Source: Cognatiluteimonas sedimenti (GTDB lineage: Bacteria; Pseudomonadota; Gammaproteobacteria; Xanthomonadales; Xanthomonadaceae). Taken from it: a DNA stretch of 64,000 nt. Below are positions 34,888 through 50,870 of the stretch, one piece after another; positions within the stretch are counted from its first letter, which is position 1, and every line of letters begins with the position of its first letter. A model generated the notes under the pieces. That model did no database searches. It was not told where the DNA came from and saw nothing but the letters and a program-made list of their open reading frames with translations. A program made the translations under genes and the position numbers. The stretch lies in NCBI RefSeq assembly GCF_022808325.1, contig NZ_JALGCL010000001.1, positions 167,780-231,779 of the forward strand, in the 5' to 3' direction.

Positions 34888-37350
34888 TCATCCCGCGCGC
34901 CGCCGGGCGCGAAGCCGCTGCCAGGTATCGAGGACGACGACCGCGGCCAACGGCAACCCGATCGCCCAGACCAGCAGCGCCGTCGGCGGGGGCGCGAATC
35001 CGAACAGGCTGGCGACGGCGGGATGCAGGACCGCCAGCGCCAGCACCGCGCTGGCGACGATGGTGACGGTCCAGAACGCTGGATTTGGCGTGCGCAGCGC
35101 CTGCCACAGCGAATCGCCCGAGCGGTGCAGCAGGATCAGGAACAGGTTGCCGGCGACGATCGCGACGAAGGCCAGCGCCGACAGTTGCGCGTGCGGCAGG
35201 CCCGTGCGCAGCGCGATCGCGAAGGTCAGGGCCACGGTGGCGAACATCACCGCGCCTTGCCCGAGCGCACCCAGCATGGTCCAGCGATCCAGCAGTCTTC
35301 GTCCGGGCGCGCGGGGCGGCCGGCGCATGATGTCGGCGGGCGGCGGTTCGCGTTCGAGCACGATCGAACACGCCGGATCGATGATGAGTTCCAGGAACAC
35401 CACGTGCAGCGGCAGCAGCACCGGCGGCGTGCCCACCAGCAGCGGCAGCAGCGCCAGCCCGGTGATCGGCACGTGCACGGCGAGGATGTAGCGCACCGCC
35501 TTGGCGATGTTCTCGTAGATGCCGCGCCCGAGGCGGATGGCGCGCACCACGCTGACGAAGTTGTCGTCGAGCAGGACGATGGACGCGGCCTCGCGTGCCA
35601 CGTCGGTGCCACGGCCACCCATCGCGATGCCGACGTGCGAAGCGACCAGGGCGGGGGCGTCGTTGACCCCGTCGCCGGTCATGGCCACGATTTCGCCGCG
35701 TCGCTTCAGCGCCTGCACCAGCCGCAGCTTGTGCTCCGGGCGCACGCGGGCGAAGACGCTGGCGGACTCGATTTGCCGTGCCAGCGTCGCCTCGTCCCAG
35801 CCTTCCACGTCCGTGCCGCCCACCACGCCGGCGCCGATCGCGATACCGGCCTGCGTGGCGATCGCACGCGCGGTGCCCGCGTGGTCGCCGGTCATCATCA
35901 GCACGCGCACGCCCGCAGCGCGAGCGTCGGCGACGGCTTCGGGTACTGCCGGCCGCAGCGGGTCGGCGAAGCCGATCAGGCCCAGCCATTGCAGCTGGAA
36001 CGCGGCGACATCGTCGGGCAGTGCCGACCCCATCGCGGCGGGCAGGTTGCCGGCGCCGGCGCCGAGCACGCGCAACCCGCGTTGCGTCATCGCCTCCACC
36101 CGCGCGAGCAGTGCCGCGCGCTCGTCCTCCGGCAGCCCGCACAGCGCGAGGATCGTTTCCGGCGCGCCCTTGGCGGCGACGCGCAGCTGGCCATCGTCGC
36201 TGCGCCAGACCTCGACGTGCGCCGGCAACCGGCTCGAGAGCGGGTATTCGCGCAGGCGTTGCCAGCCCTCCGGTTCGGGGGCCAGGCCGGTGCCCGCGGC
36301 GGCCTCCACCACGGCGCGGTCCATCGGATCGTGCGACAGCGGCGGGCACGCGAGCCTGGCCATCGCGATCAGTTCGCCGGTATCGTGGCCATCGAGCTCG
36401 GCGACCGCCATGCGGTTCTCGGTCAGGGTGCCGGTCTTGTCGGTGCACAGCACCGTGATCGAGCCCAGCGCTTCGATCGCCGGCGCATGCCGCACCAGCA
36501 CGTTGTGCCGGGCCATGCGCCACGCACCCAGCGCCAGGAACACCGTCAGCACCACCGGGAACTCCTCCGGGATGTTGGACATCGCCAGGGTGATGCCCGC
36601 CAGGACCGCGTCCAGCCAGCCGCCACGCAGCCAACGGTAGAGCAGCACCATCGCCACGCAGGTGGCGATGCCCAGGGTGGCGAACAGGGCCACCGTCCGC
36701 CGCATTTCGCGCTGCAACGGCGTGCGCTCGACGTCGATGGACGCCAGCGTGTCGCCGATCCTGCCGACCGCCGTGGCGGCGCCGGTCGCGACGACCTCCG
36801 CGCTGCCGCGCCCCCGCACCACCAGGGTGCTGGCGTGCAGTAGCTGGTCGTCGCCGACGCCACCGGCGGCGCGGGCGACCGCAACCGACTCGCCGGTCAA
36901 CAGGGATTCGTCGACATGCAGGTCGGCGCCCTCCAGCACCCGCGCATCGGCGGGGATGCGATCGCCCTCACCGACCAGCAGCACGTCGCCGACCACCACT
37001 TCGCGCGCCGGCACCACCGTGGCCGCGCCGTCGCGCAGGACCCGCGCGCGCGGGCTGCTGAGGTCGCGGAGCGCCTGCAGCGCACGCTCGGACTTGTATT
37101 CCTGGTACAGCGTCAGGCCGATCACCAGCAGCACCGAGGCCAGCAGCAGGGACGCTTCGCGCGGGTCGCCCAACAGCATGTAGATCGCGGCGGCCGCAAC
37201 GAGCAGCAGCAACATGGGCTCGCGCAGCACTTCGGCAACGAGCGTCCATCCGCGCTTGCGCGGCGGTTCCGGGAGCACGTTGGCGCCGTCGCGCCGGAGG
37301 CGGGCGGCGGCTTCGTCAGTGCTCAGTCCCGTCCTGGCTGTGGCCGGCAT
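34888..37350 (-). CDS. P-type cation-transporting ATPase (P2-like)
   Basis: An 820-residue ATP-driven ion pump with about ten helices. Actuator motif LTGES, M4 PEEFP in [16 protein letters not shown], phosphorylation motif [11 protein letters not shown], nucleotide-binding KGAPE, and hinge [12 protein letters not shown] are all present. The PEEFP core differs from calcium PEGLP pumps, so the ion (calcium, sodium/potassium-like, or manganese) is uncertain. The C terminus ends at membrane helices without an extra domain. It is convergent with the CoA-transferase gene and stands as a single gene in a block with likely oxygen-linked functions. Confidence 0.93.
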
Positions 37351-37515
37351 CGTTAGGTGTCCGGTGCGGATCGCTCTGCCTGCATTGGACCACGTGGCCT
37401 GCCGCAACGGCATCCGCCAACGCGAGCCGTGCCGGTGCCGCAGGCGGCTTTCGCCGGGACGAGCGGATGCCAGCGGCGGCGAATCGGCAAGCCCCGGTGC
37501 CGTCGAACCACGGCG

Positions 37516-37788
37516 TTACCGGGCGGACGCGGGCTGCTGCTCGATTTCGCCGAGAATCCGGCCTGCCTCGTCGACCACCAGCCGCGCGCGCCTGCCTTCA
37601 TGGTAGAAGCTGGCGCGATATTGACCGGCATCCTCGTCGAGTCCGCGCTCGCACAGCACGGTGATCTTGCGGTCTTCCAGCAACTGCCGGAACCTGGCGA
37701 CTTCCAGCCCCAGGGCCTCCGCCACCAGCGCGCCATCGATCTCGATCTGGTGGGCCGGGTTGAGTTCGACCGGAATGGGCTTGCCCAT
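37516..37788 (-). CDS. Small DUF6522-like protein
   Basis: A 90-residue cytoplasmic protein. VELNPAHQIEIDGALVAEALGLEVARFRQLLEDRKITVLCERGLDEDAGQYRASFYHEGRRARLVVDE follows the pattern I recall for DUF6522, with a single Cys in LCERG and a basic strand-rich tail. Its function is unknown; relatives are small proteins often near oxygen- or stress-regulated genes. A TGACCTGGGTCA dyad lies 57-68 bases upstream of the start. The next gene upstream is a P-type ATPase on the same strand, 165 bases away. Confidence 0.7.
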   Translation of the reverse strand: MGKPIPVELNPAHQIEIDGALVAEALGLEVARFRQLLEDRKITVLCERGLDEDAGQYRASFYHEGRRARLVVDEAGRILGEIEQQPASAR

Positions 37789-37844
37789 GGCGCAGTTCCC
37801 TTGGCGTGGAATCCCAGCTTCCCGCACGGGAACGTCTCCTGCCC

Positions 37845-37856
37845 TGACCTGGGTCA
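37845..37856 (-). promoter_or_regulatory. TGACC-N2-GGTCA dyad, weak FNR/CRP-like site
   Basis: TGACCTGGGTCA is a perfect 5-base inverted repeat with TGA-N6-TCA core spacing, as in FNR/CRP-family sites, but the outer bases fit poorly (6 of 10). It lies 57-68 bases before the DUF6522-like gene, about the same distance as the better box before the cupin operon. Confidence 0.35.
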
Positions 37857-37947
37857 TCCAGGCGCGCGGCCAGCGCGCGGGGACGACGCGCGCTCGCTTC
37901 CGCGCGTCCAGCCCGCGGGCGGCTTCCGTCGTCCGAGCGACAGCCGC

Positions 37948-39630
<1,683 letters not shown>

Positions 39631-39676
39631 GCTTTTCCTCCTGGATGGATAGTGGCTGCGGCGTACGCCAGCGGCC

Positions 39677-39690
39677 TTGACCTGCGGCAA
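39677..39690. promoter_or_regulatory. Weak FNR-like box between divergent genes
   Basis: TTGACCTGCGGCAA matches 7 of 10 positions of TTGAT-N4-ATCAA. It lies 47 bases before the start of the secretion ATPase and 109 before the divergent PLP decarboxylase. On its own the match is near chance for this GC content. Confidence 0.25.
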
Positions 39691-39798
39691 GCGATGGCGG
39701 CTCGCCCGATCCAGGCGCCAGGAGTGCGGGGTGGCACGGCCTGCTCCTGCAAGCCCGCGGGGCTACGATACCCGCGCCACCGCAGCCGGGAACATCGC

Positions 39799-41196
39799 AT
39801 GAGCAGCCCGTTCGATCCACTCCTCGACCGCGCCCACCGGCACGCCAGTGCCTTCCTCGACGATCTGCCGCAACGTTTCGTCGGCGCACGCGCCGGGCGT
39901 GGGGAAATGATGGCGGCGCTGGACGCGCCATTGCCGCAGCAGGGCGAGGATCCTGCGGCGGTGCTCGACCTCCTCGCCGTGCAGAGCGGGCGTGGCGCTT
40001 CGGGTTGCGCCGCGCCGCGCTATTTCGGCTTCGTCATCGGCGGGTCGCTGCCGGTTGCGCTGGCGGCGGACTGGCTGGTGTCGACCTGGGACCAGAACGC
40101 CGGGATCCACGTCATCTCGCCGCTCGCCGCCGCGCTGGAGGAAATCGCGGCGCGCTGGCTGCTGGAGCTGTTCGACCTGCCGCGCGAAAGCGGCGTCGGC
40201 TTCGTCACCGGCTGCCAGATGGCGCACTTCACCTGCCTAGCCGCAGCGCGCCATGGCGTGCTGCGCAGGGCAGGGTGGGACGTGGAGGCCGATGGCCTCA
40301 ATGGCGCGCCGCGCATCCACGTCGTGGCCTCGCGCGAGGCGCATGTCACCGTCGAGGTCGCGCTGCGCTACCTGGGCCTTGGCATGCGCGCGCTGGTGCA
40401 GGTGGAGTCCGACGACCAGGGGCGGATGCAGGACCAGCGCCTGCGCGAGCTGCTTCCGACCCTGCAGGGCCCGGTCATCGTCTGCGCCCAGGCGGGCAAC
40501 GTGAACACCGGCGCCTTCGATCGGCTGCGCGGGATCGCCGCCGCCGCGCATGCGCATGGCGCGTGGCTGCATGTCGATGGCGCCTTCGGCCTGTGGGCGC
40601 GCGCCAGCGGCGAGGAAGCCGTGCGCGGGCTTGCCGACGGCATCGAGCTCGCCGATTCCTGGGCCACCGACGCGCACAAGTGGCTCAACGTGCCCTACGA
40701 CAGCGGCGTGGCGATCGTGCGCGACGCCGGCGACCACCGCGATGCGATGACCTCCAGCGCCGCCTACCTGATCCAGACCGGGGGCGCCGAGCGCGACGCC
40801 GTCGATTGGGTCCCCGAGTTCTCGCGCCGCGCGCGCGGCATCCCGGTGTACGCGGCGTTGCGCGCCCTCGGTCGCGATGGCGTCGCCGACCTCGTCGACC
40901 GCTGCTGTGCGCGTGCCCGCCAGTTCGCCGGACTGCTGTCTGCCGAAGCAGGCGTCACCATCCTGGCTGACGTCGTCCTCAACCAGGTGCTGGTGCGTTT
41001 CGGCGACGACGACGAGCTCACGCGTGCGGTGGTCGCGGGGATCCAGGCAGACGGCACCTGCTGGGCCAGCGGCACCACCTGGCACGGCCTCGCGGCCATG
41101 CGCATCTCGGTCTCCAACTGGGCGACGAGCGAGGACGACGTCGCCGTCAGCGCCGATGCGATGCTGCGCGTGTTCCGCAGCCTGCGCGAGGCCTAG
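39799..41196 (+). CDS. PLP-dependent aspartate/glutamate-type decarboxylase
   Basis: A 465-residue group II pyridoxal-phosphate decarboxylase. Fold markers: PRYFGFVIGGSLP, ALEEIAARWLLELF, GVGFVTGCQMAHFTCLAAAR, HVDGAFGLWA, and the PLP lysine in TDAHKWLNVPYDSG. It resembles aromatic-L-amino-acid and cysteine-sulfinate decarboxylases, but the substrate cannot be assigned. A very long open frame continues upstream antisense to the secretion ATPase; I chose the ATG at 39799 because coding features begin there. It is divergent from the ATPase. Confidence 0.9.
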   Translation: MSSPFDPLLDRAHRHASAFLDDLPQRFVGARAGRGEMMAALDAPLPQQGEDPAAVLDLLAVQSGRGASGCAAPRYFGFVIGGSLPVALAADWLVSTWDQNAGIHVISPLAAALEEIAARWLLELFDLPRESGVGFVTGCQMAHFTCLAAARHGVLRRAGWDVEADGLNGAPRIHVVASREAHVTVEVALRYLGLGMRALVQVESDDQGRMQDQRLRELLPTLQGPVIVCAQAGNVNTGAFDRLRGIAAAAHAHGAWLHVDGAFGLWARASGEEAVRGLADGIELADSWATDAHKWLNVPYDSGVAIVRDAGDHRDAMTSSAAYLIQTGGAERDAVDWVPEFSRRARGIPVYAALRALGRDGVADLVDRCCARARQFAGLLSAEAGVTILADVVLNQVLVRFGDDDELTRAVVAGIQADGTCWASGTTWHGLAAMRISVSNWATSEDDVAVSADAMLRVFRSLREA

Positions 41197-41360
41197 CAGC
41201 CCCGGCCTGGCAGCACAAAGGACCGCAAGCCCCATCCCGGGCGTGGAGTCAGCGGACGGTGGTGCTTCGTGGCCGACCGCCCCCCGCTGGCCGCGCCCGA
41301 GCCGGCGGCCCGCGGGCCCCGGCCCGGCTGGACGTTACCGGGACCGTGCTTCCTCCGCGC

Positions 41361-42413
41361 CTACATGACCGCCAGCGCGGAGTTGACGAAGTGGCCGGGG
41401 TATTCGTCTCGGATCTGCAGCTTGCGCTCGATCGAGGCGATGATGTGCGAGGCGAAGTTGACCCCGGCCATTTCGCTGCAGGTGAACAGGTTGCCCGGGG
41501 TGAACACGTTCACTTCCAGGATGGTGTCGCCGATGATGTCGATGCCCACCAGAAACATGCCGTCGGCCTGCAGCTTGGGCCGGATCAGTTCCGCCAGGCG
41601 AAGTTCGCGCTCCGTGATCTTCACCGGCTTTGCAGTACCACCGGCATGGATGTTGCTGCGAACGTCGTCCTCGGCGCCTACCCGGCGCATCGCCGCGAAC
41701 TTGCCGTCCACCTGCAACGGGACGCCGTTCATCATGAACAGGCGGATGTCGCCCTTGTCGGCGCCCGGGACCACGGCCTGGGCGATGATGTAGCCGTCGC
41801 GCGAGATCGCCTCCGCCATCTGGTTGAGGTTGCCCGAAGATTTCGAGTTCACCACGAACACGCCCTGTCCGCCGGAGCCCTGCAACGGCTTGAGCACGAC
41901 CTTGCCGCCATTGGCCTTGGCGAAGGCCTTGATGTCGCTGGTGTTGCGGGTGATCAGCGTCTTGGCGCGCACCTCGCGAGGGAACGACTGGAAGTACAGC
42001 TTGTTGATCGCCAGCGAGAGTGATTCCGGGTCGTTGAGTACCAGGACGCCCGCATCGGCGGCCCGGCGCCCGAACTGGATGCCGATGGTCTCCGCCCAGG
42101 GCCGCTCGCTCGCCTCGCGGGACGGATCGCTGCGCAGCATCAGGACATCCAGTTCCTCCACGTCGATCAACCTGCTCTTCCTGCCGGCGTTCTTCAGCGC
42201 CTTGAAGAACTCGTCGCGGCTGCGCGACCTGCCCTTGCCGGGGGGGATCATGCGTGCGTGCACCTGCAGGGTGTCGTCGGGGCTCAGGACGAAATCGCCC
42301 GGGGTGAGGTAGCACACGTCGTGGCCCCGGCGCGAGGCTTCGTGCGCGAGCACCGTCGTGGTGTAGCGCGGGTATTCGGAGTCGATCGAGTTGACGAAGA
42401 AGGCGATCACCAT
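41361..42413 (-). CDS. GshB-like ATP-grasp ligase
   Basis: A 350-residue ATP-grasp enzyme of the glutathione-synthetase-like group, which forms amide bonds between a carboxylate and an amine at the cost of ATP. N-terminal pre-ATP-grasp domain IAFFVNSIDSEYPRYTTTVLAHEASRRGHDVCYLTPGDF; ATP-grasp KPLQGSGGQGVFVV and metal-binding DIIGDTILEVNVFTPGNLF. It lacks the ENV-SPT signature of true GshB, so the product is likely a different peptide or conjugate. It is the last gene of a three-gene operon and starts in a 7-base overlap with the QEGLP gene. Confidence 0.85.
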   Translation of the reverse strand: MVIAFFVNSIDSEYPRYTTTVLAHEASRRGHDVCYLTPGDFVLSPDDTLQVHARMIPPGKGRSRSRDEFFKALKNAGRKSRLIDVEELDVLMLRSDPSREASERPWAETIGIQFGRRAADAGVLVLNDPESLSLAINKLYFQSFPREVRAKTLITRNTSDIKAFAKANGGKVVLKPLQGSGGQGVFVVNSKSSGNLNQMAEAISRDGYIIAQAVVPGADKGDIRLFMMNGVPLQVDGKFAAMRRVGAEDDVRSNIHAGGTAKPVKITERELRLAELIRPKLQADGMFLVGIDIIGDTILEVNVFTPGNLFTCSEMAGVNFASHIIASIERKLQIRDEYPGHFVNSALAVM

Positions 42414-44317
42414 GGCGGGTCTTCCCTGAGCATGTCGATGAAGGATTGGCCCTGGCGCAGACGCGACAGCATCGCGCGCGCGCCGGGGCGTTCGAGGAAT
42501 TCAGGCGTGGCCACCGGTGCCCGCAGCATGCCGCGCGACTCCAGCTCTTCCACCACCGGCACGTGGCGCTCGGCGATCTTGCCGTACCAGAACGGATCGA
42601 GCGGGCGGCCTTCGGCGACCCAGCGCAGTGCCTGCTGGAAGCCACGCAGGTAGATCGCATCCTTGGTCAGGCCGCCGGATCGGAAAACCCGGGTCACGAT
42701 GTTGAATGCCCCATGGGCGGAAAAGCCGTGCTCGCGGTGCAGCAGGCGGTGGCAGGCGATGAAGTCGGCCCCGTCCAGCATCGCCTCGACCACGAGCACG
42801 CGCGCAGCCAGCAGGCGCAAGCGTGCCACCGTCAGGCCCCCGACCAGGAATTCGGCCAGGACGCCCAGCCCTTCCTGCAGGCCTTCATAGCCGGCCAGGC
42901 CGGCGCCAAAGATGCCAAGCCCTTGCTGGTTGCCGTTGACGAAGGTGAGGACGTGCACGCTGATCTCGTGCTGCAGCAGCGGGTCCAGGCGTGGCTTGGG
43001 CACGCTGGTGGCGGTGGAAATCAACAGCGAGCGGCCCGACACCATCAGCCCCGGCCCGATGTCCGCGCGCAGGCAGGTCTCCGCGATGGCGAAAGCGGGG
43101 GCGCGTTGCGCATAGCGCCCAAGCATGCGCTGCGCTTCGGCCTGGACCACGGAGGCATCCACGCGCGGCGCGGTGCCCCGGGTCCCGGGCGGGAACGCCT
43201 CCAGGATCACGCGCGCCAGTTCGAGCAGCGAGCGTTCCACTGCGCCGTATTGCAGCAGGGACACGTAGCGGAAGGCGCTGGTATTTCGTCGCTGCAGCAT
43301 CATCAGCTGCTGGTCCAGCTCGATTCGCTTTTCGCCGAACAGCTGCTCCAGCACCGGGTCCTCGACCGCGCGCAGGTCGATGGCATAGAGACGGCGCTTG
43401 GCGGCATCCGGGTTGATCGGCAGCGGGCGGTAGCGGAATTCCGGCGGCCGGCGTCGCTTGCCGGCTTCGAACTCCTCCCAGGCCTGCAAGGTGTTGATCG
43501 GGGACACGCCCAGGAGGAAATCGAACGAGGCGCTGATCCGGGCGAGCGCGCGGTCGGCGCGGGTGGCGGCCTGGACGAAGCGCCGACGCCCGAAGGAACG
43601 ATGCTGCGGGCGTCCGCCGCGGTCGCGGTCGCGATCGCCGGCGGCGACCCGTTCGACGAAGTGGGCCACCGCCTGCAGCAACGCGTCGGAAACGGCGACT
43701 TCCAGCTGGTGGTAGATCTGCGGGTAGATGCGCCGCCCATCACCCGGGATGCGATGGATCTGCGGGATGCCGAGCGACAGCCGCGAAATCCCCTCGCGGC
43801 CCTCGAGGGCAGCCTGGATCCCGGGCGATGCGGGCAGCAGGCCGGATCTGCGGACTTCGGGTTTTCGCAGGTCGATCTCGATGTCCGCCAAGGCCCGCTC
43901 CAGGGCCTTCGCCACTTCCCGTGCGGCCGGGTCGTCGCTGGCGCCCAGAACGAAGTCGAACGGCTCCAGGCGCGGGCTCTGCTCTTGCACGCTGGCGTCG
44001 CGCGGCAGGTCGTGCAGGTCGACCAGCAGGAAACGCGGGTAATCGGCTTGCAGCTGGTCCAGCAACCCCCCGACCTGGATGCCGGCCGATGCATCGGCCG
44101 GCTCGTCGCCGGCCTCGGGCCAGATCACGCTGGCCGCGCCGATCGAGGCAATCCGCCGCGCGAGGCTGAACGGCGCGTCGGGGTAGCGGGCCAGCAGCAG
44201 GAACGGCAACGGTCGGTCCAGGTACACGCGACCGCCATCGGGCAGGCGGCGGCGATAGGCATGCTCGCCGTCCAGGTGCGGTGCTGGCGGCTTCCGGGCA
44301 GGCGCCCCTGCGCTCAC
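42407..44317 (-). CDS. DUF1704 / QEGLP-motif zincin-like peptidase (MATCAP homologue)
   Basis: A 636-residue protein of the DUF1704 family (flavohemoglobin expression-modulating QEGLP motif). The C-terminal half has the zincin motif HEISVH (His450, Glu451, His455) and LQEGLG (Gln481, Glu482), where Glu482 is the probable third metal ligand. This matches the animal DUF1704 enzyme MATCAP, a metallocarboxypeptidase that trims a C-terminal tyrosine. The N-terminal 270 residues are less conserved and contain Arg-rich segments. It begins with GTG in a GTGA overlap with the upstream gene stop, and its end overlaps the ligase gene, so all three are coupled. Native substrate unknown. Confidence 0.85.
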   Translation of the reverse strand: MSAGAPARKPPAPHLDGEHAYRRRLPDGGRVYLDRPLPFLLLARYPDAPFSLARRIASIGAASVIWPEAGDEPADASAGIQVGGLLDQLQADYPRFLLVDLHDLPRDASVQEQSPRLEPFDFVLGASDDPAAREVAKALERALADIEIDLRKPEVRRSGLLPASPGIQAALEGREGISRLSLGIPQIHRIPGDGRRIYPQIYHQLEVAVSDALLQAVAHFVERVAAGDRDRDRGGRPQHRSFGRRRFVQAATRADRALARISASFDFLLGVSPINTLQAWEEFEAGKRRRPPEFRYRPLPINPDAAKRRLYAIDLRAVEDPVLEQLFGEKRIELDQQLMMLQRRNTSAFRYVSLLQYGAVERSLLELARVILEAFPPGTRGTAPRVDASVVQAEAQRMLGRYAQRAPAFAIAETCLRADIGPGLMVSGRSLLISTATSVPKPRLDPLLQHEISVHVLTFVNGNQQGLGIFGAGLAGYEGLQEGLGVLAEFLVGGLTVARLRLLAARVLVVEAMLDGADFIACHRLLHREHGFSAHGAFNIVTRVFRSGGLTKDAIYLRGFQQALRWVAEGRPLDPFWYGKIAERHVPVVEELESRGMLRAPVATPEFLERPGARAMLSRLRQGQSFIDMLREDPPW

Positions 44318-45120
44318 GCCGGTTGGCCCAGCAGGACTCGTGCCTGCGCGGCGACGTGGCGGATGAAATACCGCATCGCCGCAAGCTCCCCCGGGTCGGG
44401 GGTTCCGGTCCACTCGTCCATGTAGAACTTCTTGAACTCCAGCGCGATCGCGCAGCCGGTCCGGGGATAGCGTTCGTGCACGAACCGCGCCAGCTCGCCC
44501 TTGCCCTGGAAGGCCACGTTCTCGCGCACGTCCAGCCGGCGGCCGTTGAAGTCGAATGCGCGCATCGCCTCCATCAGCGGATCGAGCAGGAAAGCCCAGT
44601 GTTCGCGCGGCATCGAAAACGTGCCGATGTTGATGTCGGGGGCGGACGCCTGCGGCATCGGCGCGGCGTCGGCACCCTTGCGCCGGTGGTTGTAGCTGTG
44701 CACGTCGAGCAGCACGAAGCGGCCGTGCCGCGCCACGATGCCGTCGAGCAGCGCGGCGAGCATGTGGTAAAAGCCGCGGTGGTAATCCTGCAGTCGCCGC
44801 AACAGCGCGCCGGAGGGCGGCGCGCGCCAGACCTGCAGTCCCCAGCATTGCGCGGGATCCAGGTAGATCGCGTCGCCAAGGCCGCGGTTGAGGTCGGCTT
44901 CGAATCGCGATCGCAGCGCGACCACATGGTTGGGCACGTCCATGATCGCCTGGCCGGTATGGGGATCTTCCTCGCGCAGGCGCGCGTCCTCGGGCAGCAC
45001 CATCGCGGCGCAGGTGCTTGCGTCGAGGTCGTGTCCATCATGGATCGCGGTGGCGATGACTGGGTCGTCGCCGCACTGGACGATCCACCAGGGCGGCGGA
45101 GCGGGGCGGGCTGCGGTCAT
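44314..45120 (-). CDS. N-formylglutamate amidohydrolase-like protein
   Basis: A 268-residue protein of the N-formylglutamate amidohydrolase (FGase/HutG) family, a zinc-peptidase-like fold that cleaves N-acyl amide bonds. Motifs seen: DGHDLDASTC near the N terminus, RFEADLNRGLGDAIYLD, GRFVLLDVHSYNHRR (metal-binding HSYNH region) and NVAFQGKGELARFVHE, then ALEFKKFYMDEWTG. It is not in a histidine-degradation context; instead it leads an operon with a DUF1704 peptidase and an ATP-grasp ligase. Its role is thus likely deacylation or hydrolysis of a novel conjugate. Confidence 0.88.
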   Translation of the reverse strand: MTAARPAPPPWWIVQCGDDPVIATAIHDGHDLDASTCAAMVLPEDARLREEDPHTGQAIMDVPNHVVALRSRFEADLNRGLGDAIYLDPAQCWGLQVWRAPPSGALLRRLQDYHRGFYHMLAALLDGIVARHGRFVLLDVHSYNHRRKGADAAPMPQASAPDINIGTFSMPREHWAFLLDPLMEAMRAFDFNGRRLDVRENVAFQGKGELARFVHERYPRTGCAIALEFKKFYMDEWTGTPDPGELAAMRYFIRHVAAQARVLLGQPA

Positions 45121-45317
45121 GGCGATACGATTGCCGATGCTGTGTGGCCGATGCGTGTAGGAATCGGCGGAATGCCGCTGCCCGACGGCGTCGCGAAACG
45201 GCATTCGACGCCAGTGGAAGGGCTGTTCTCCAGTATCCGAGGCTTGTCCAGCCCTTGCGCTTGCGTTCAGCGACCGCGCGCCTTTCCCTGCGTGATGCGT
45301 GATCGACTGTCGTCGGG

Positions 45318-45331
45318 TTGACCCCGATCAA
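45318..45331 (+). promoter_or_regulatory. FNR/ANR-like box before the small Cys-tailed protein
   Basis: TTGACCCCGATCAA matches 9 of 10 positions of TTGAT-N4-ATCAA. A CATCAT -10-like hexamer lies at 45354-45359, 29.5 bases from the box centre, exactly the spacing of class II FNR promoters. The downstream start is at 45401. The rest of the spacer 45121-45400 shows nothing else. Confidence 0.65.
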
Positions 45332-45400
45332 GGTCGCCGCATTCCGGCTCTTCCATCATTGCGCGGCCGGGAAACCCCGGTTTCCCATGGAGAAATCGCA

Positions 45401-45640
45401 ATGCAGTTCGAACTGTCCACCCCCAACCTCGATGCCGCGAAACTCGCTGCCGCACTGCGACCGCTGGATCCCGATGCGCGCGTCGTCTTCGATGCCGGGC
45501 GCGGCCGCCTCGAGGTGATTTCCGTGGCCACCGCTGCACAGGTGCTGGGCGTTCTGGACGGAATCGGCTGCCCGGCGACGCCGCTGGAGAAGGAAGTCCA
45601 CATCAGCGGCGGCAGCACCTGTTGCGGGCACTGCAGCTAG
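45401..45640 (+). CDS. Small Cys-tailed protein, likely oxygen-regulated
   Basis: A 79-residue protein with a heavy-metal-associated-like or ferredoxin-like pattern of two beta-alpha-beta units (LDAAKLAAALRPLDPDARVVFDAGRGRLEVI and AAQVLGVLDGIGCPATPLE) and a tail ISGGSTCCGHCS. The closing CCGHC could bind metal or a cluster, but it is not the CxxC of true HMA domains. GGAGA lies upstream of the ATG. An FNR-like box and matched -10 precede the gene. I do not recognise a named family. Confidence 0.72.
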   Translation: MQFELSTPNLDAAKLAAALRPLDPDARVVFDAGRGRLEVISVATAAQVLGVLDGIGCPATPLEKEVHISGGSTCCGHCS

Positions 45641-45808
45641 AACTGGAGAGACGTTCCCCGGGGTCGCGACCGGCAGGCGCGGCCGTTGCCGGGGGCGGAT
45701 GTGGCCCGGCAACCCTGGATTGGCCCTTCCGTCCCCCTGCCTCGCTTTGTGCCGACGGGACCCCTGCGTCGTGATCCCGGCGCCAGCTTTGGCTGCTGGC
45801 TTCCGGCC

Positions 45809-46930
45809 TCAATTCCTGCGCTTGTGGAAGTACACCTGTTCGGCCGCCCAGCGCAGTGGCGGCGAGTGCAGCAGCAGGTCGAACGGCCAGTCGAACTGCA
45901 GGCGGTCGTAGGCCCAGCGCAGCGCGCGCTTGGCACGGAATCGCGGCGCCGCGGCAATCGCGACCTGTTCCGGCGCTGCGTCGCCGTCGCGCAGGTGCGC
46001 CGCGACTGCGCGGCCCACCGCCCAGCCGTGTTCCCAGGCCGCATGGATGCCGCCGGCGGTCACCGGCGAGACGATGCCGGCGGCGTCGCCGGTGAGGATG
46101 GCGCGGTCGCGCGCCATGTCGAACACCGGGCCGCTGCACGGGATCAGCCCGGCGCGGGTGTGGCCGGGTTTCAGGTAGCGCGGAAGCCCACCCGCGATGC
46201 CAACGCGCAGCAGGAAGCCGTCGATGTCGGGCACGCGTGCGTTGGCCGGGTCGTGGCGCAGTGCCAGTCCGGCCTGCACGCCGGTGGGGTTCTGCGCCAG
46301 CCAGCCGATGTAGCCGGGCGCGTAGCGCTTGCTGATGAAGCAGTGCAGGGCGTCGGGACTGGCCAGTTGCGCGCCGGGGAATTCGTATTCGATGCCGTAA
46401 AGGAACTGGCGCACCTCGCCGAGGCCGCAGCGGCGCGCGACGCGAGAGCGCGCGCCGTCGGCGCCCACCAGGTACCGCGCGTGGCCGGCCCCCTGCACCT
46501 GCCAGCCATGGTCGCAGCGTTGGGCATCGGTGAAGGCGCATCCCAGGCGCAGGTCGACGCCATGCGCACGCAGCTGTCCGGCGAGCCAGCGCATCACCGC
46601 CGGCGTGTCCGTGGCGAGGAAATAGTAGCCCGGCGCGGCCAGCGCCACCTGCCTGAGGCTGGGCGCGTACAGGCGCACCTGCTCGATCCGCCGCGTCAGT
46701 GGCGCGGGGACCTGGTTGAGCAGGGTGCGTTCGGCGGCTTCCTTGACGATGATGCCGGTGGTGCGCAGCTTGTCGCCAGGGTCGCGCTTTCGTTCCAGCA
46801 CGCACACGCGCAGCCCGCGCTGCGCGGCGGCAATGGCGCACGCGGCGCCGGCGAAGCTGGCGCCGACCACGACCAGGTCGAAGCCGCTGGACGTCGTCGC
46901 GTCGTGGGTGTCGCTTCCGTTCGATCGCAT
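45809..46930 (-). CDS. FAD-dependent oxidoreductase (geranylgeranyl-reductase-like)
   Basis: A 373-residue flavoprotein of the PHBH/geranylgeranyl reductase superfamily. The FAD fingerprint is DLVVVGASFAGAACAIAAAQRG (GxGxxG variant GASFAG), the ADP-binding end ERKRDPGDK, a mid-domain DG motif LVGADGARSRVARRCG and the FAD-ribityl GDAAGIVSPVTAGGIHAAWEHG. Relatives reduce isoprenoid double bonds or hydroxylate lipids and aromatics. The gene is single; no isoprenoid or phenolic cluster is adjacent. Substrate unknown. Confidence 0.88.
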   Translation of the reverse strand: MRSNGSDTHDATTSSGFDLVVVGASFAGAACAIAAAQRGLRVCVLERKRDPGDKLRTTGIIVKEAAERTLLNQVPAPLTRRIEQVRLYAPSLRQVALAAPGYYFLATDTPAVMRWLAGQLRAHGVDLRLGCAFTDAQRCDHGWQVQGAGHARYLVGADGARSRVARRCGLGEVRQFLYGIEYEFPGAQLASPDALHCFISKRYAPGYIGWLAQNPTGVQAGLALRHDPANARVPDIDGFLLRVGIAGGLPRYLKPGHTRAGLIPCSGPVFDMARDRAILTGDAAGIVSPVTAGGIHAAWEHGWAVGRAVAAHLRDGDAAPEQVAIAAAPRFRAKRALRWAYDRLQFDWPFDLLLHSPPLRWAAEQVYFHKRRN

Positions 46931-47035
46931 GGCCGCAACGATGCCGCAGTGGTGCGAGGCGGCGATGGCGGCGGCGTGAAGCGGATCTGAAGTGGCGCGC
47001 GGCTCGCCCGATTGGGGCGACCGCCCGTGGCAGGC

Positions 47036-47917
47036 CTACACCGCGACCGCGCTCCCGCGCCGCGGTGCCTGCCGCCGCGCCGCATACATCGCGCGGTCGG
47101 CGTGGGCAAGCAGGGATTCGGGATCGTCGCCATCAGCCGGGAAACAGGCGATGCCGATGCTGGCATCCACGTGCACCGGCTCGCCTGCCGATACGCAGGG
47201 CGCCTGCAGGCGAGCGCGAAGTTCACGCGCGATCGCGCGCGCGGCGCCTTCATCGTTGCAGCCCGGCAACAGCACCACGAACTCGTCGCCACCCACGCGG
47301 GCCACCAGATCGCCGTGGCGCAAACCCTGCTGCAGTCGCTGCGCGACTTCCTGCAGGATCCGGTCGCCAGCGTCGTGGCCGCCGCGATCGTTGACCGCCT
47401 TGAAGCCGTCGAGGTCAACATAGAGCAGGGCCAGGCCGCCGTCGCCGTCGGCGGCATTCGCGATCGCGCGTTGCAGTTCGTGCTGCAGGCGATGGCGGTT
47501 GGGCAGGCCCGTCAGCGGATCGTGGCTGGCGCGGTGCTCGAGTTCCAGCTCGATGCGGCGCAACTCGGTCACCTCGCGGGCCACGCCGATGCGCACGCCC
47601 AACTCGGGCAGCCACTGCGCCGACCACTGGATGTCGATGCTGTGTCCATTCTTGTGGACGTAGCGGTTTCGGAAGTGGCGCTGGACTTCGCCGCGCATCA
47701 CCTGTTCCGCCTGCCGCGCGGTCTGGGCGCGGTCGTCGGGGTGGACCAGCTCGAAGATGGGCCGGCCGATCACCTCGGCAGGCGCATAGCCGAAGATACG
47801 TTCGAAACTGGCGCTGGCGAACAGGAAACGGCCGTCGGCATCGACCACGCAGACCGCATCGGGCAGCAGGTCCAGCACGGTGGCGAGCGGGGGCAGCTTC
47901 GGGGTCATCGCTTCCAT
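47036..47917 (-). CDS. PAS-GGDEF diguanylate cyclase
   Basis: A 293-residue cytoplasmic protein. A PAS/PAC domain (about residues 12-130: LLPDAVCVVDADGRFLFASASFERIFGY) is followed by a GGDEF domain: HRASHDPLTGLPNRHRLQHE, DLDGFKAVNDRGGHDAGD and the active VGGDEFVVLLPG. It should make cyclic di-GMP in response to a small ligand, redox state or light via PAS. Two close ATGs (47917 and 47908) are possible. It is divergent from a small lipoprotein gene. Confidence 0.9.
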   Translation of the reverse strand: MEAMTPKLPPLATVLDLLPDAVCVVDADGRFLFASASFERIFGYAPAEVIGRPIFELVHPDDRAQTARQAEQVMRGEVQRHFRNRYVHKNGHSIDIQWSAQWLPELGVRIGVAREVTELRRIELELEHRASHDPLTGLPNRHRLQHELQRAIANAADGDGGLALLYVDLDGFKAVNDRGGHDAGDRILQEVAQRLQQGLRHGDLVARVGGDEFVVLLPGCNDEGAARAIARELRARLQAPCVSAGEPVHVDASIGIACFPADGDDPESLLAHADRAMYAARRQAPRRGSAVAV

Positions 47918-48055
47918 TGCGCGCCCGACTCGGTGGGCACATCCACCTTCATTATCGCAGCACTGCGTGAAAGGGCCCGGCTCATCCCCGGCGGCCGGAA
48001 CCCGCGCTACCATGGGCATCGCAACCGGCCTGGTACCGGTTCCGGGAACTGCTGC

Positions 48056-48274
48056 ATGCACAAGGCAACGATACTGGTACTGGCGGTGGGCCTGGGTGGC
48101 TGCGCCTCGATGTCGGATGCCGGTTGGCAGGGGCGCGATGCCGAGCCGTTCGATGCGGCGAAAGCGCAGTGCGATGACCAGGCCGCGGCGCAGGCAACGG
48201 ATGGCGACGCCAGGACGGCCGCCTTCGAGGCCTGCATGCAGGCAAAAGGCTGGACCCGCCCCACGGAACGATAA
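48056..48274 (+). CDS. Small putative lipoprotein
   Basis: A 72-residue protein with a signal peptide and lipobox LGGC (Cys16), then DAGWQGRDAEPFDAAKAQCDDQAAAQATDGDARTAAFEACMQAKGWTRP. Two further Cys could pair. The C-terminal ACMxAKGW motif is common to small proteobacterial lipoproteins of unknown function. The start at 48056 is the only sensible one, although an open frame runs upstream. Confidence 0.72.
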   Translation: MHKATILVLAVGLGGCASMSDAGWQGRDAEPFDAAKAQCDDQAAAQATDGDARTAAFEACMQAKGWTRPTER

Positions 48275-48298
48275 GTCCGCGCGGGGCAGCGCGGGCGA

Positions 48299-49072
48299 TC
48301 AGGCGTTGGGTGCGCGGGGCTCCGGCAGGTCGCGCCCACGCCCCAGGGCCAGTACCACCACCGTCAATGCCAGGTTCGCCGCGATCGACAGCAGCGGTGC
48401 ATGCGCCGGCAGCGCGATGTCCATCGGGACCAGTGCATCGACCAGGCCATTGGCGAGGTTCCATCCCCAGTGCAGGCCGACCGCCGCCCAAAGAGAGCCT
48501 GTGCGCCACAGGGCCGTGGCGCAGGCGATGCCCATGCTGGCGAGTGACAGCCACTCCAGCGGGCCGTTGCCGATCCGGTAGACGTGGTTGAGCACGTACA
48601 TCGTTGCGGAAAAGCCCACGAATGCCGCACCTCGGCGCCACGCGATGCCTGCGGCGCGATACCAGAAGCCACGGGTCAGGATGTCCTCGGCCAGCGACGG
48701 GACGAAGGTCGAAAGCAGCATCATCGGCAGCGCGGCCAGCAACACCGGCGACGGCATCGCGGAGCCCGCGGGGCTGGGGACCAGAATGCCGCTGCGCAGT
48801 CCGAGCCACGCTGCCGCCGCCTTCGCGGCGATGGCGAGCAACAGGCCGCCTGCCAGCCAGGACCACCCGCGCCGCGCGCGACCCAGCGCCCACGCACCGT
48901 AACCCCGGAACCCGAGCCAGTGCGACAGCGGCCAGGCGGCCAGCACGCAGGCCGTCATCAGCCCGGCCTGGATCGGAAAGCTGTGCAGCAGGCGCGCGCC
49001 CACGCCCTCGGCGGACTGGTACAGCACGAACAGGACGACGAAGGAGACGACGATGCGCGACCGTTGATTCAT
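48299..49072 (-). CDS. CPBP-type intramembrane protease-like protein
   Basis: A 257-residue membrane protein with about eight helices. The CPBP/Abi motifs are visible: SLAEDILTRGFWYRAAG (EExxxR-type with ED), a conserved His in NHVYRIGNG, and GLHWGWNL. These match the CAAX-protease-like fold of bacterial CPBP proteins, some of which act in bacteriocin maturation or immunity. The first acidic pair is ED rather than EE. It is convergent with the small lipoprotein gene. Substrate unknown. Confidence 0.82.
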   Translation of the reverse strand: MNQRSRIVVSFVVLFVLYQSAEGVGARLLHSFPIQAGLMTACVLAAWPLSHWLGFRGYGAWALGRARRGWSWLAGGLLLAIAAKAAAAWLGLRSGILVPSPAGSAMPSPVLLAALPMMLLSTFVPSLAEDILTRGFWYRAAGIAWRRGAAFVGFSATMYVLNHVYRIGNGPLEWLSLASMGIACATALWRTGSLWAAVGLHWGWNLANGLVDALVPMDIALPAHAPLLSIAANLALTVVVLALGRGRDLPEPRAPNA

Positions 49073-49410
49073 GCTGCCCCCAGGTGCTGGTCGGAGTCTA
49101 TCGTGGAGCGCGGCCCGCGTGCCTGGACGTGCGGGAGCCGGGCACACCGGGCCCCCTGCCTTCCGGAGCGGCGTGGGAATCGACCGAAGCGGCCTCGTCG
49201 GAAGCGGGACCCGATGGGCTGTAGCAGCAGGCGCGGCGGGTGTTCGAGGTAACCGAACTGGTCCACCGGACCCTGCCGGTGGTCGGCATCAACCGCTGCA
49301 ACCACATCGACGTCGCGGCGCGCACCATCGGCGGCCCTGACCGGACAGGATCGCCCTGGCCCTCGCCGACGGCCTATCCTAGTTCCGACCCCCCGCTGCC
49401 CTCCAAGACC
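49073..49410. other. Intergenic region without a recognised gene
   Basis: This 338-base spacer lies between divergent CPBP and DUF1993 genes. Open frames on both strands (the + frame runs into the DUF1993 gene) are Arg/Pro/Gly-rich and have no signature. I see no hairpin or operator worth naming. Confidence 0.45.
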
Positions 49411-49941
49411 ATGGCAAACCAGAAGATCATCGAACTCCAGCGCGTCTTCGCCTCGCGACTGGCCGTGCTCGGGCATTTGCTCGACGTTGGCGAACAGCAC
49501 TTTGCGGACCCCGATGTCTTCCTCGGCAAGCGGCTTGCCGCGGACATGTTGCCGTTCTCGGCCCAGGTCGCCTTCGCCTGCAACGCCCCGCGCGGATTCT
49601 CGCAGTGGTGCGCCGGGGAGCCCATCGAGAACCTGAGGCCGGACGACATCCGTTCGCTTCCCGAGGCGCGCGCAGCGATCGCGCAGACGCAGGAGCTGGT
49701 CGCAGGCATCGCGATCGACGACGCCAAGCTCGATGAGGCCAAGCGCATTGGCCTGGGGCCCGGACGCTATTGCGAACTGCCGGGGCACCAATACGTCGCC
49801 GATTACCTTTTGCCCAACCTGTATTTCCACGTCACCACGGCATACGCGATCCTTAGGCTGCTCGGCGCGCCGCTCGGCAAGGCCGACTACCTGGGTTTCC
49901 TCGCGCCGCTCATCAGGCACGAGGGCGGGGCAGGGGCATGA
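49411..49941 (+). CDS. DUF1993 family protein
   Basis: A 176-residue cytoplasmic protein that is mostly helical: IIELQRVFASRLAVLGHLLDVGEQH, LAADMLPFSAQVAFACNAPRGF, and a C-terminal HQYVADYLLPNLYFHVTTAYAILRLLGAPLGKADYLG. This matches DUF1993, a DinB-like helical fold with unknown function, often near metallo-hydrolases. The start at 49411 follows clear loss of coding character upstream. Its stop overlaps the start of the M14-like gene by four bases, so both are co-translated. Confidence 0.82.
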   Translation: MANQKIIELQRVFASRLAVLGHLLDVGEQHFADPDVFLGKRLAADMLPFSAQVAFACNAPRGFSQWCAGEPIENLRPDDIRSLPEARAAIAQTQELVAGIAIDDAKLDEAKRIGLGPGRYCELPGHQYVADYLLPNLYFHVTTAYAILRLLGAPLGKADYLGFLAPLIRHEGGAGA

Positions 49942-50870
49942 CCACCGACACCTACCCGATCGGCACGCCCGGTGTTCCCTGGGGCGTCGAGGAGCGCGTC
50001 CAGTGGCGCGACGGCCAGATGCGCAAGCGCAGTTACGCCGAAGAGGTCGTGGCAGCCGTCGATCGACTGCGCGTTCGCTACGACGTCCAGCAGTACGGGC
50101 AACTCGATTATGGGGATGACCGCTACCCGCTGCTGGCGATCCGCAGCCGCGACTGGGACGACGCGTTGCCGGTGTTACTGGTCACGGGCGGCGTCCATGG
50201 CTACGAGACCAGCGGCGTGCATGGCGCGTTGCGCTTCATCCAGCGACATGGCGGCGATTACGCGGGCCGGGCCAACCTGCTGGTGGCGCCCTGCGTCAGT
50301 CCCTGGGGCTACGAACGCATCCATCGCTGGAATCCCGACGCCCTCGACCCGAACCGCTCGTTCCATGCCGACAGCCCGGCGAGGGAGTCGGCGGGGCTGT
50401 TGCGCCTGGTGGCGCCGCTGCGCGGGCGCGTGCTGATGCACATCGACCTGCACGAGACCACCGACAGCGACGAATCCGAATTCCGACCGGCGTTGGCCGC
50501 GCGGGACGGCAAACCGTTCGAACCGGGCGAAATCCCCGACGGCTTCTACCTGGTCGACGACACCCGGAACCCCCAGCCCGCGTTCCAGCAGGCGATCATC
50601 GACGCGGTGGCGGAAGTGACCCACATCGCCCCGGCCGACGGCAACGGCGAGATCATCGGCTCGCCGGTGGTCGCGCCTGGGGTCATTCGTTATGCGCTGG
50701 AGGAACTCGGCCTTTGCGCGGGCATCACTGGCGCCCGCTTCACGACCACCACCGAGGTGTATCCCGACAGCCCGCGCGCGACGCCCGAACAGTGCAACGC
50801 CGCGCAGGTGGCGGCGGTGCGCGCCGGGATCGATTTCGCGCTGGCGCAGGTCCCGGCGCGCACGCCTTGA
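49938..50870 (+). CDS. M14-family metallocarboxypeptidase/aspartoacylase-like
   Basis: A 310-residue cytoplasmic zinc enzyme. The zinc site is formed by GGVHGYETSG (His and Glu) and MHIDLHETTD (His), with the substrate-binding DPNRSFH. This matches the M14 succinylglutamate-desuccinylase/aspartoacylase-like group that cleaves C-terminal residues or N-acyl amino acids. The start ATG overlaps the DUF1993 stop. A shared pathway with the DUF1993 protein is inferred from the coupling alone. Confidence 0.88.
   Translation: MTTDTYPIGTPGVPWGVEERVQWRDGQMRKRSYAEEVVAAVDRLRVRYDVQQYGQLDYGDDRYPLLAIRSRDWDDALPVLLVTGGVHGYETSGVHGALRFIQRHGGDYAGRANLLVAPCVSPWGYERIHRWNPDALDPNRSFHADSPARESAGLLRLVAPLRGRVLMHIDLHETTDSDESEFRPALAARDGKPFEPGEIPDGFYLVDDTRNPQPAFQQAIIDAVAEVTHIAPADGNGEIIGSPVVAPGVIRYALEELGLCAGITGARFTTTTEVYPDSPRATPEQCNAAQVAAVRAGIDFALAQVPARTP

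What the first reader, a model, noticed from the sequence alone, without database searches (positions are those of the whole stretch)
41361..45120. Coupled operon: amidohydrolase-like, MATCAP-like DUF1704 peptidase, GshB-like ATP-grasp ligase
Three genes are joined by short overlaps (GTGA and 7 bases). The DUF1704 protein has the HEISVH zincin motif (His450, Glu451, His455) plus LQEGLG, matching the animal tubulin tyrosine carboxypeptidase MATCAP. Its neighbours are an N-formylglutamate-amidohydrolase-like enzyme with an intact HSYNH region and an ATP-grasp ligase that resembles GshB but lacks its typical SPT motif. A ligase that makes amide bonds, sitting with two probable zinc enzymes that break them, suggests a cycle of tagging and detagging of a peptide, protein or small molecule not yet described. 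The animal homologue acts on C-terminal tyrosine; the bacterial substrate is open.
Basis: partly seen in the sequence, partly recalled or inferred. Interest (0 to 1): 0.8.

Follow-up and report, generated by a model that had tools for sequence, protein, structure and literature searches.

The report
Conserved three-enzyme amide ligase–hydrolase cassette
Three bacterial genes that travel together across distant phyla encode one enzyme that probably joins amide bonds and two zinc enzymes that probably cut them, one of them a relative of the animal enzyme that trims tubulin tails; public databases call the joining enzyme a glutathione synthase, which it probably is not, and its true substrate is unknown.

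The parts
44314..45120 (-). FGase-like zinc amidohydrolase (268 aa, M14-like fold), first gene
42407..44317 (-). DUF1704/MATCAP-family peptidase, 636 aa, GTG start, second gene
   Evidence: PF08014 260.7 bits; TIGR02421 309.9 bits, under its cut-off of 338.65
43637..44272 (-). N-terminal degenerate FGase-like domain of the peptidase (about residues 16-227), probably inactive
42410..43579 (-). MATCAP zincin domain (residues 247-636)
42953..42970 (-). HEISVH (HExxxH) zinc site, H450 E451 H455
   Evidence: 77 of 78 rows; aligned with HEIGTH of human MATCAP
42869..42877 (-). QEG, E482 as probable third zinc ligand
   Evidence: E482 in 77 of 78 rows; aligned with EEG of human MATCAP
41361..42413 (-). 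GshB-like (PRK12458-type) ATP-grasp ligase, 350 aa, third gene
   Evidence: NF009110 424.2 bits over 408; TIGR01380 186.2 under 299.05; E. coli GshB 1gsa E 1.6e-34
41364..41420 (-). 19-residue C-terminal tail of the ligase with fixed end (N-x-x-L-A-x-L/M)
   Evidence: 75 of 77 orthologues end exactly 19 residues after K331; all 77 end in L, M, V or I
44314..44317 (-). 4-base stop/start overlap GTGA between genes 1 and 2
   Evidence: a -4 overlap is possible in 48 of 69 measured gene 1-2 junctions (the script took the start codon nearest the preceding stop, which favours overlaps)
42407..42413 (-). 7-base overlap between genes 2 and 3
   Evidence: -4 in 54 and -7 in 6 of 77 gene 2-3 junctions, with the same choice of start codon

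Best explanation
The three genes are one transferable, probably translationally coupled enzyme cassette. The GshB-like ATP-grasp ligase activates a carboxylate as an acyl phosphate and joins it to an amine, giving an amide (inferred from conserved catalytic residues). The FGase-like enzyme, a zinc amidohydrolase of M14-like fold, and the MATCAP-like enzyme, a zinc carboxypeptidase of HExxxH type, cut amide or peptide bonds of the same or a closely related molecule, so the three make and trim one product. The most likely substrate is a short peptide or amino-acid conjugate in the cytosol, other than glutathione. The absence of any detected conserved transporter, carrier or precursor gene suggests that the starting molecules are ones that ordinary cells already have. 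In the window's protein the FGase-like domain fused to MATCAP looks inactive (its catalytic Glu position is Leu), and the separate FGase gene would supply that activity. Shown: three-gene linkage, fusion, predicted folds, conserved sites, and sequence distance from glutathione synthase. Inferred: all chemistry, and that the three act on one molecule.
For: Linkage: MATCAP in 79 of 80 and FGase in 77 of 80 ligase loci, 8 phyla. Second sample: 15 ligase loci over the NF009110 cut-off, MATCAP adjacent in 14, the other cut by the contig end. Borders: blastn of window 36,001-50,000 against L040 gives one match, 41360-45096. Fusion of FGase and MATCAP in 6 loci, FGase motifs present in 5. Pairwise distances of the three proteins over 70 rows correlate (Pearson 0.90-0.95, Spearman 0.79-0.85). 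Active sites conserved. Fold matches. 38 positions are conserved alike (90% or more) in 31 cassette ligases and 17 genuine GshBs, including K125, K160, R210, R225, R233, D273, E281 and N283 in the numbering of this genome's own GshB. The genome also has a genuine GshB (435.7 bits) and a genuine FGase (259.3 bits) elsewhere.
Against: No substrate is identified and no activity was measured. Pairwise distance correlation partly reflects shared species history. The ligase collection was reached from three sequences of the window's order, so the taxon counts are biased (44 of 80 are Lysobacteraceae). The cassette is sparse: 3 of 151 genomes of the order sample have the strong match, 14 of 398 of the phylum sample. 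L057 has the ligase divergent from the other two, and in L153 and L158 other genes sit between FGase and MATCAP, so strict co-transcription is not universal. In L163 the fused FGase site looks lost, and L157 has about 2.8 kb upstream of MATCAP without an FGase, so FGase activity may be dispensable in some. Four of 10 FGase-like places showed no partner in the DNA held, all on short contigs or near contig ends.
Confidence: 0.5

Rival explanations
1. Protein tagging and detagging: the ligase adds a residue to the C-terminus or a side chain of a protein, as RimK and tubulin tyrosine ligase do (recalled), and the MATCAP-like and FGase-like enzymes remove it.
For: The MATCAP family is known for protein tails (PMC10499314, passages). 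The cassette clade scores higher against human MATCAP than stand-alone bacterial copies do: 43.8 against 18.1 bits with 15-sequence profiles of similar length (the two sets differ in taxonomic breadth and coverage, so the comparison is rough). The ligase carries a fixed hydrophobic C-terminus that could itself be such a tail. The ligase also shows weaker similarity to RimK.
Against: The ligase is nearer to GshB, a small-molecule enzyme, than to RimK. No conserved substrate protein was found nearby. FGase relatives act on small molecules (recalled).
Confidence: 0.22
2. A second glutathione synthase, or one for a close glutathione analogue, with hydrolases for turnover.
For: NCBIfam names it glutathione synthetase, and PMC3462692 used PRK12458 as a GshB marker (passages). 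PMC3557214 counts a second glutathione synthase in PRF 81, some agrobacteria and all sinorhizobia (passages; that these are cassette ligases is my inference). Arginines R86, R225 and R233 are kept (their role at the substrate is recalled). 12 of 16 carriers outside Pseudomonadota have a PF04107 match.
Against: Under the TIGR01380 and PRK05246 cut-offs. A clean gap separates it from genuine GshB, 423.7 bits or more against 240.9 or less. The genome has a genuine GshB. Of 16 of the 17 carriers outside Pseudomonadota, 3 have a genuine GshB, none has PF04262, and 4 have neither PF04262 nor PF04107 (13 of the 16, and all 4, are draft MAGs). D9 and T288 are replaced by conserved Asn and Gly.
Confidence: 0.13
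3. Recycling or remodelling of cell-wall peptide fragments by M14-like and zincin peptidases with re-ligation by the ATP-grasp enzyme.
Confidence: 0.08
4. Defence or resistance cassette that conjugates or destroys a toxic amine or peptide.
For: Patchy distribution, presence on plasmids (124 records) and tight three-gene borders fit a mobile trait.
Against: No PADLOC match for any of the three at E 0.01. The only phage-collection matches to the ligase are 4 records at 28.8-30.9% identity.
Confidence: 0.05

Closest known systems
MATCAP / TMCP tubulin tyrosine carboxypeptidases (KIAA0895L, PF08014)
   Different: In an operon with a ligase and an FGase; carries a degenerate FGase-like N-terminal domain; bacteria have no tubulin tail substrate of that kind (recalled); activity untested
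Stand-alone bacterial DUF1704 (TIGR02421, flavohemoglobin expression-modulating QEGLA motif protein)
   Same: Same Pfam family, HExxxH and QEG
   Different: Separate side of the tree: 44 cassette and fused rows against 28 stand-alone rows, SH-aLRT 100, quick tree. The window protein is under the TIGR02421 cut-off. The window's genome has one of each
Glutathione synthase GshB (TIGR01380)
   Same: ATP-grasp fold family and catalytic residues
   Different: Fails the equivalog models; T288 to Gly, D9 to Asn; a fixed 19-residue stretch after K331
N-formylglutamate amidohydrolase HutG (TIGR02017)
   Same: PF05013, M14-like fold, zinc-site motifs
   Different: 19.7 bits against a cut-off of 278.75; a stronger FGase match (259.3 bits) sits elsewhere in the genome
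Tubulin code enzymes as a set: ATP-grasp TTL/TTLL, M14 CCPs, MATCAP (recalled)
   Same: The same three enzyme superfamilies meet: an ATP-grasp ligase, an M14-like amidase and MATCAP
   Different: Only the MATCAP link was tested here; the other two parallels are at superfamily level and recalled

Membership tests
MATCAP family PF08014 | Score over the Pfam gathering cut-off | tested here: met
   260.7 against 27 bits
MATCAP family PF08014 | HExxxH plus a downstream EG glutamate aligned with human MATCAP | tested here: met
MATCAP family PF08014 | MATCAP fold | tested here: met
MATCAP family PF08014 | Carboxypeptidase activity on tubulin tails | not testable with these tools
   needs protein
TIGR02421 QEGLA protein | Score over the NCBIfam cut-off | tested here: not met
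   309.9 against 338.65
Glutathione synthase TIGR01380 | Equivalog score | tested here: not met
   186.2 against 299.05; PRK05246 201.1 against 272
Glutathione synthase TIGR01380 | ATP-grasp catalytic residues | tested here: met
   38 positions shared at 90% or more in both groups; which are catalytic is recalled
Glutathione synthase TIGR01380 | Activity with gamma-Glu-Cys and Gly | not testable with these tools
   needs protein
PRK12458 subfamily NF009110 | Score over the cut-off | tested here: met
   424.2 against 408
FGase family PF05013 | Score over cut-off and fold | tested here: met
N-formylglutamate deformylase TIGR02017 | Equivalog score | tested here: not met
   19.7 against 278.75
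Known anti-phage defence (PADLOC-DB 2.0.0) | Any model match at E 0.01 | tested here: not met
   0 families for all three proteins

The most novel reading that the evidence does not exclude
A bacterial forerunner of the tubulin-tail cycle. The ligase's own C-terminal tail, whose end is fixed at the same residue in 75 of 77 orthologues and always ends in Leu, Met, Val or Ile, or another protein's tail, is extended by the ATP-grasp ligase and trimmed back by the MATCAP-like carboxypeptidase, with the FGase-like enzyme removing a second kind of bond. Animal MATCAP would then descend from the cassette lineage. Profiles of similar size put human MATCAP nearer to cassette copies than to stand-alone ones, which fits but does not prove this. 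The fixed tail is also explained by simple structural packing, or by docking to a partner; the six fused-type ligases, whose FGase is attached to MATCAP, lack it.
Probability: 0.1. Interest if true: 0.9.

Novelty: new variant of a known kind. Interest (0 to 1): 0.6.

Why it matters
Genomes carrying this cassette are annotated with a glutathione synthase that is probably something else, and biology may have been read from that name. PMC3557214 counts a second glutathione synthase in all sinorhizobia (passages). PMC10308900 reports a glutathione synthase GshB 38-fold and a QEGLA motif protein with the next locus tag 27-fold higher in Photobacterium damselae at 1% than at 3% NaCl, and discusses GshB under virulence (section 19 and passages; that these two genes are the fused form of this cassette is my inference from names and locus tags, not checked by sequence). 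The cassette also gives a bacterial setting in which the MATCAP fold is tied to a ligase, making the ancestral role of an animal tubulin enzyme testable.

Tried and rejected
A conserved fourth gene (transporter, carrier, regulator, precursor peptide): clustering of 4,657 flanking ORFs of at least 100 aa from the 80 loci (blastp E 1e-15, half-length coverage, up to 8 kb on each side) found families shared within Lysobacteraceae but none shared by three or more loci outside it. The cut-off would miss peptides under 100 aa. A receiver-domain protein (my reading of the sequence) lies between FGase and MATCAP in both L153 and L158, but this was not seen elsewhere.

Viral origin: a scan of viral contigs with P0004 found no relative. 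It used P0004 alone, so it reaches close relatives only.

Recent transfer by composition: cassette G+C is 68.1%, window 69.8%, so composition gives no sign.

Solved FGase relative by sequence alone: P0001 had no match and the A3 profile only a weak 2odf match (E 0.18); the fold search settled it.

A check showed that the window and 3 of the other 19 rows keep a His at the H141 position, while the catalytic Glu position is Leu or Ile in all 20. The text now says degenerate and probably inactive.

Papers: searches for DUF1704; QEGLA; MATCAP with bacteria; FGase, ATP-grasp and gene neighbourhood; KIAA0895 with zincin, GshB and others; family accessions; gshB2 with Sinorhizobium; bacterial homologues of the tubulin enzyme; and the three annotation names together listed no paper that I could recognise as describing the cassette. 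I read passages of five (PMC10499314, PMC10308900, PMC3245289, PMC3462692, PMC3557214) and section 19 of PMC10308900; the rest I saw as listings. A 2009 survey of ATP-grasp amidoligases that I recall as possibly relevant is not held, so a prior prediction there is not excluded.

Rows dropped before counts: proteins with in-frame stops and incomplete triads were left out of the alignments. 70, 78 and 78 rows were used; 42, 39 and 34 chosen rows; 20 chosen rows. One search used 38 cassette rows (33 chosen from the 80 loci, the window and 4 genome-search loci), 6 fused and 28 stand-alone. L119, cut inside the ligase, was left out of the tail count and.
Full report
The sequence. On the minus strand lie an FGase-like gene (45120-44314, 268 aa), a DUF1704 gene (44317-42407, GTG start, 636 aa) and a GshB-like gene (42413-41361, 350 aa), overlapping by 4 and 7 bases. 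Pfam gives FGase (83.3 bits, cut-off 28.9), MATCAP (260.7, cut-off 27) and GSH-S_ATP (163, cut-off 23). NCBIfam gives PRK12458 'glutathione synthetase' for the ligase (424.2, cut-off 408), but TIGR01380 (186.2 of 299.05) and PRK05246 (201.1 of 272) fail. The peptidase is under the TIGR02421 cut-off (309.9 of 338.65) and the FGase-like protein far under HutG TIGR02017 (19.7 of 278.75). Elsewhere the same genome has a genuine GshB (435.7 bits over a cut-off of 299.05), a stronger FGase (259.3 bits) and a second, stand-alone MATCAP gene (394.5 bits). The cassette enzymes are therefore extra copies of another kind.

Linkage. In 151 genomes of the order sample only three places match the peptidase strongly, the window and two relatives (40% or more identity at E 3e-74 or better). 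A scan of GTDB contigs with the three ligases as query gave 83 confirmed matches, of which the best 80 were kept. MATCAP is present in 79 and FGase in 77; the misses L058, L090 and L111 lie at contig ends. Of the 77, all but L057 have FGase upstream of MATCAP and ligase on one strand. NCBI taxonomy puts the 80 in Pseudomonadota 63, Planctomycetota 5, Myxococcota 3, Actinomycetota 3, Verrucomicrobiota 2, Campylobacterota 2, Aquificota 1 and Bacteroidota 1; 44 are Lysobacteraceae, so the sample is skewed. The commonest junction is a 4-base overlap: 48 of 69 between genes 1 and 2, 54 of 77 between genes 2 and 3; the script took the start codon nearest the preceding stop, which favours overlaps.

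Other samples. In 398 genomes of the phylum, 14 have a ligase over the PRK12458 cut-off (16 places, window included), with a gap to all others listed: 423.7 bits or more against 240.9 or less. I fetched the 15 places other than the window (three are from one genome, G260). MATCAP is adjacent in 14; L159 begins at the contig start. FGase is separate in 5 (L150, L153, L158, L161, L162), fused in 6 (L151, L152, L155, L156, L163, L164) and not seen in 4: L154, L159 and L160 are cut by contig ends, while L157 has about 2.8 kb beyond the MATCAP gene without it. From the MATCAP side, 6 of 190 genomes in a class sample have the family: G450, the centre of the sample and already known to carry the cassette; G638 and G618, both with the full cassette; G561 and G677, with stand-alone copies and no partner in the DNA held (G561 near a contig end); and G609, with a broken copy and no partners. 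From the FGase side, 10 places in 8 of 299 genomes of the phylum (this sample overlaps that): six beside partners, four without a partner in the DNA held, all on short contigs or near contig ends. Among plasmids, 124 records match the ligase at E 1e-50 or better, all under 60% identity, mostly Sinorhizobium (79), Ensifer (20) and Rhizobium (11). Three regions were opened, two of them from S. meliloti, and all three hold the triad.

A unit with tight borders. Window 36,001-50,000 aligned to L040 (Lysobacter antarcticus) gives a single blastn match, 41360-45096 at 79%, with nothing in the flanks; L041 gives the same. L042 and L047 match in two pieces each, within 41362-45160. No flanking family shared by three or more loci outside Lysobacteraceae was found. 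In two Verrucomicrobia MAGs the array is repeated: L056 has one FGase and three MATCAP-ligase pairs; L062 has three ligases with one whole MATCAP, an N-terminal fragment and an FGase in two frames. Distances between the three proteins over 70 rows correlate (Pearson 0.90, 0.91 and 0.95; Spearman 0.79 to 0.85), as expected of genes inherited together.

Families. Cassette and fused MATCAPs (44 rows) and stand-alone ones (28 rows) are two sides of one branch, SH-aLRT 100, in a quick tree. With 15-row profiles of 234 and 248 positions, human MATCAP scores 43.8 bits with cassette sequences and 18.1 with stand-alone ones; six fused rows give 39.5. The stand-alone rows come from one order and partly cover the domain, the cassette rows from many phyla, so this suggests but does not prove that the animal enzyme is nearer to the cassette lineage.

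Glutathione. Of 16 carrier genomes outside Pseudomonadota (of 17; L119 was left out), a genuine GshB over the cut-off is found in 3, PF04262 in none, and PF04107 in 12, two of them by weak partial matches (G710, G716). Four have neither (the genomes of L056, L062, L065 and L106). Thirteen of the 16, and all four, are draft MAGs, so absence is weak evidence for each; PF04107 in most of them speaks neither way, since that family is not only glutathione-related (recalled).

The ligase tail. In 75 of 77 orthologues the protein ends exactly 19 residues after K331 (one ends at 18, one at 20), and all 77 end in Leu (41), Met (33), Val (2) or Ile (1); the C-termini of the two partners vary in length and last residue. 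The six fused-type ligases lack this tail. A fixed free carboxylate may be a structural end, a docking peptide or a substrate.

Mechanism. Most likely the ligase makes an amide bond and the two zinc enzymes prepare or trim the same small molecule or short peptide. The lack of a detected fourth gene suggests common starting molecules. A protein-tail cycle is the main rival. Published expression data that may concern the fused form show a GshB and a QEGLA gene with the next locus tag 38- and 27-fold higher at 1% than at 3% NaCl in Photobacterium damselae (PMC10308900, section 19); identity with this cassette is inferred from names and locus tags only.

Verdict. The enzymes belong to known families; the combination as a unit is a new variant, and its substrate is open.

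Noticed in passing
window 49938-50867 (+): A further zinc amidohydrolase-like gene, AstE_AspA_cat PF24827 (26.7 bits, cut-off 25), with DUF1993 (PF09351) just upstream at 49240-49938; about 5 kb from the cassette.
   Followed up: partly
window 45392-45637 (+): Divergent 82-aa frame ending in GGSTCCGHCS, no Pfam match at E 0.01; L093 carries a similar GGSTCCGGCT end.
   Followed up: partly
L001 1291-2631 (own genome, contig C4): Second, stand-alone MATCAP-family gene (394 bits), downstream of a gene that looks like ribosome GTPase RsgA (my reading of the sequence, not tested).
   Followed up: partly
L056 882-12137; L062 1084-9047: Verrucomicrobia MAGs with one FGase and repeated MATCAP-ligase genes (three pairs in L056), which might mean several substrates or several ligation steps.
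   Followed up: partly
L158 2752-4009; L153 8584-9778: Other genes between FGase and MATCAP; both gaps hold a receiver-domain-like protein (my reading of the sequence), L158 also a kinase-like gene, L153 a membrane phosphatidyltransferase-like gene.
   Followed up: partly
L045 and L091; L046 and L089: Luteimonas padinae and L. colneyensis each carry both a long-type and a short-type cassette on one contig, about 42-43 kb apart.
   Followed up: no
window 48299-49147 (-): Rce1-like CAAX endopeptidase family membrane protein (PF02517, 49.2 bits).
   Followed up: no
window 37948-39690 (-): Type II/IV secretion-type ATPase with MshEN domain (PF00437 386 bits).
   Followed up: no
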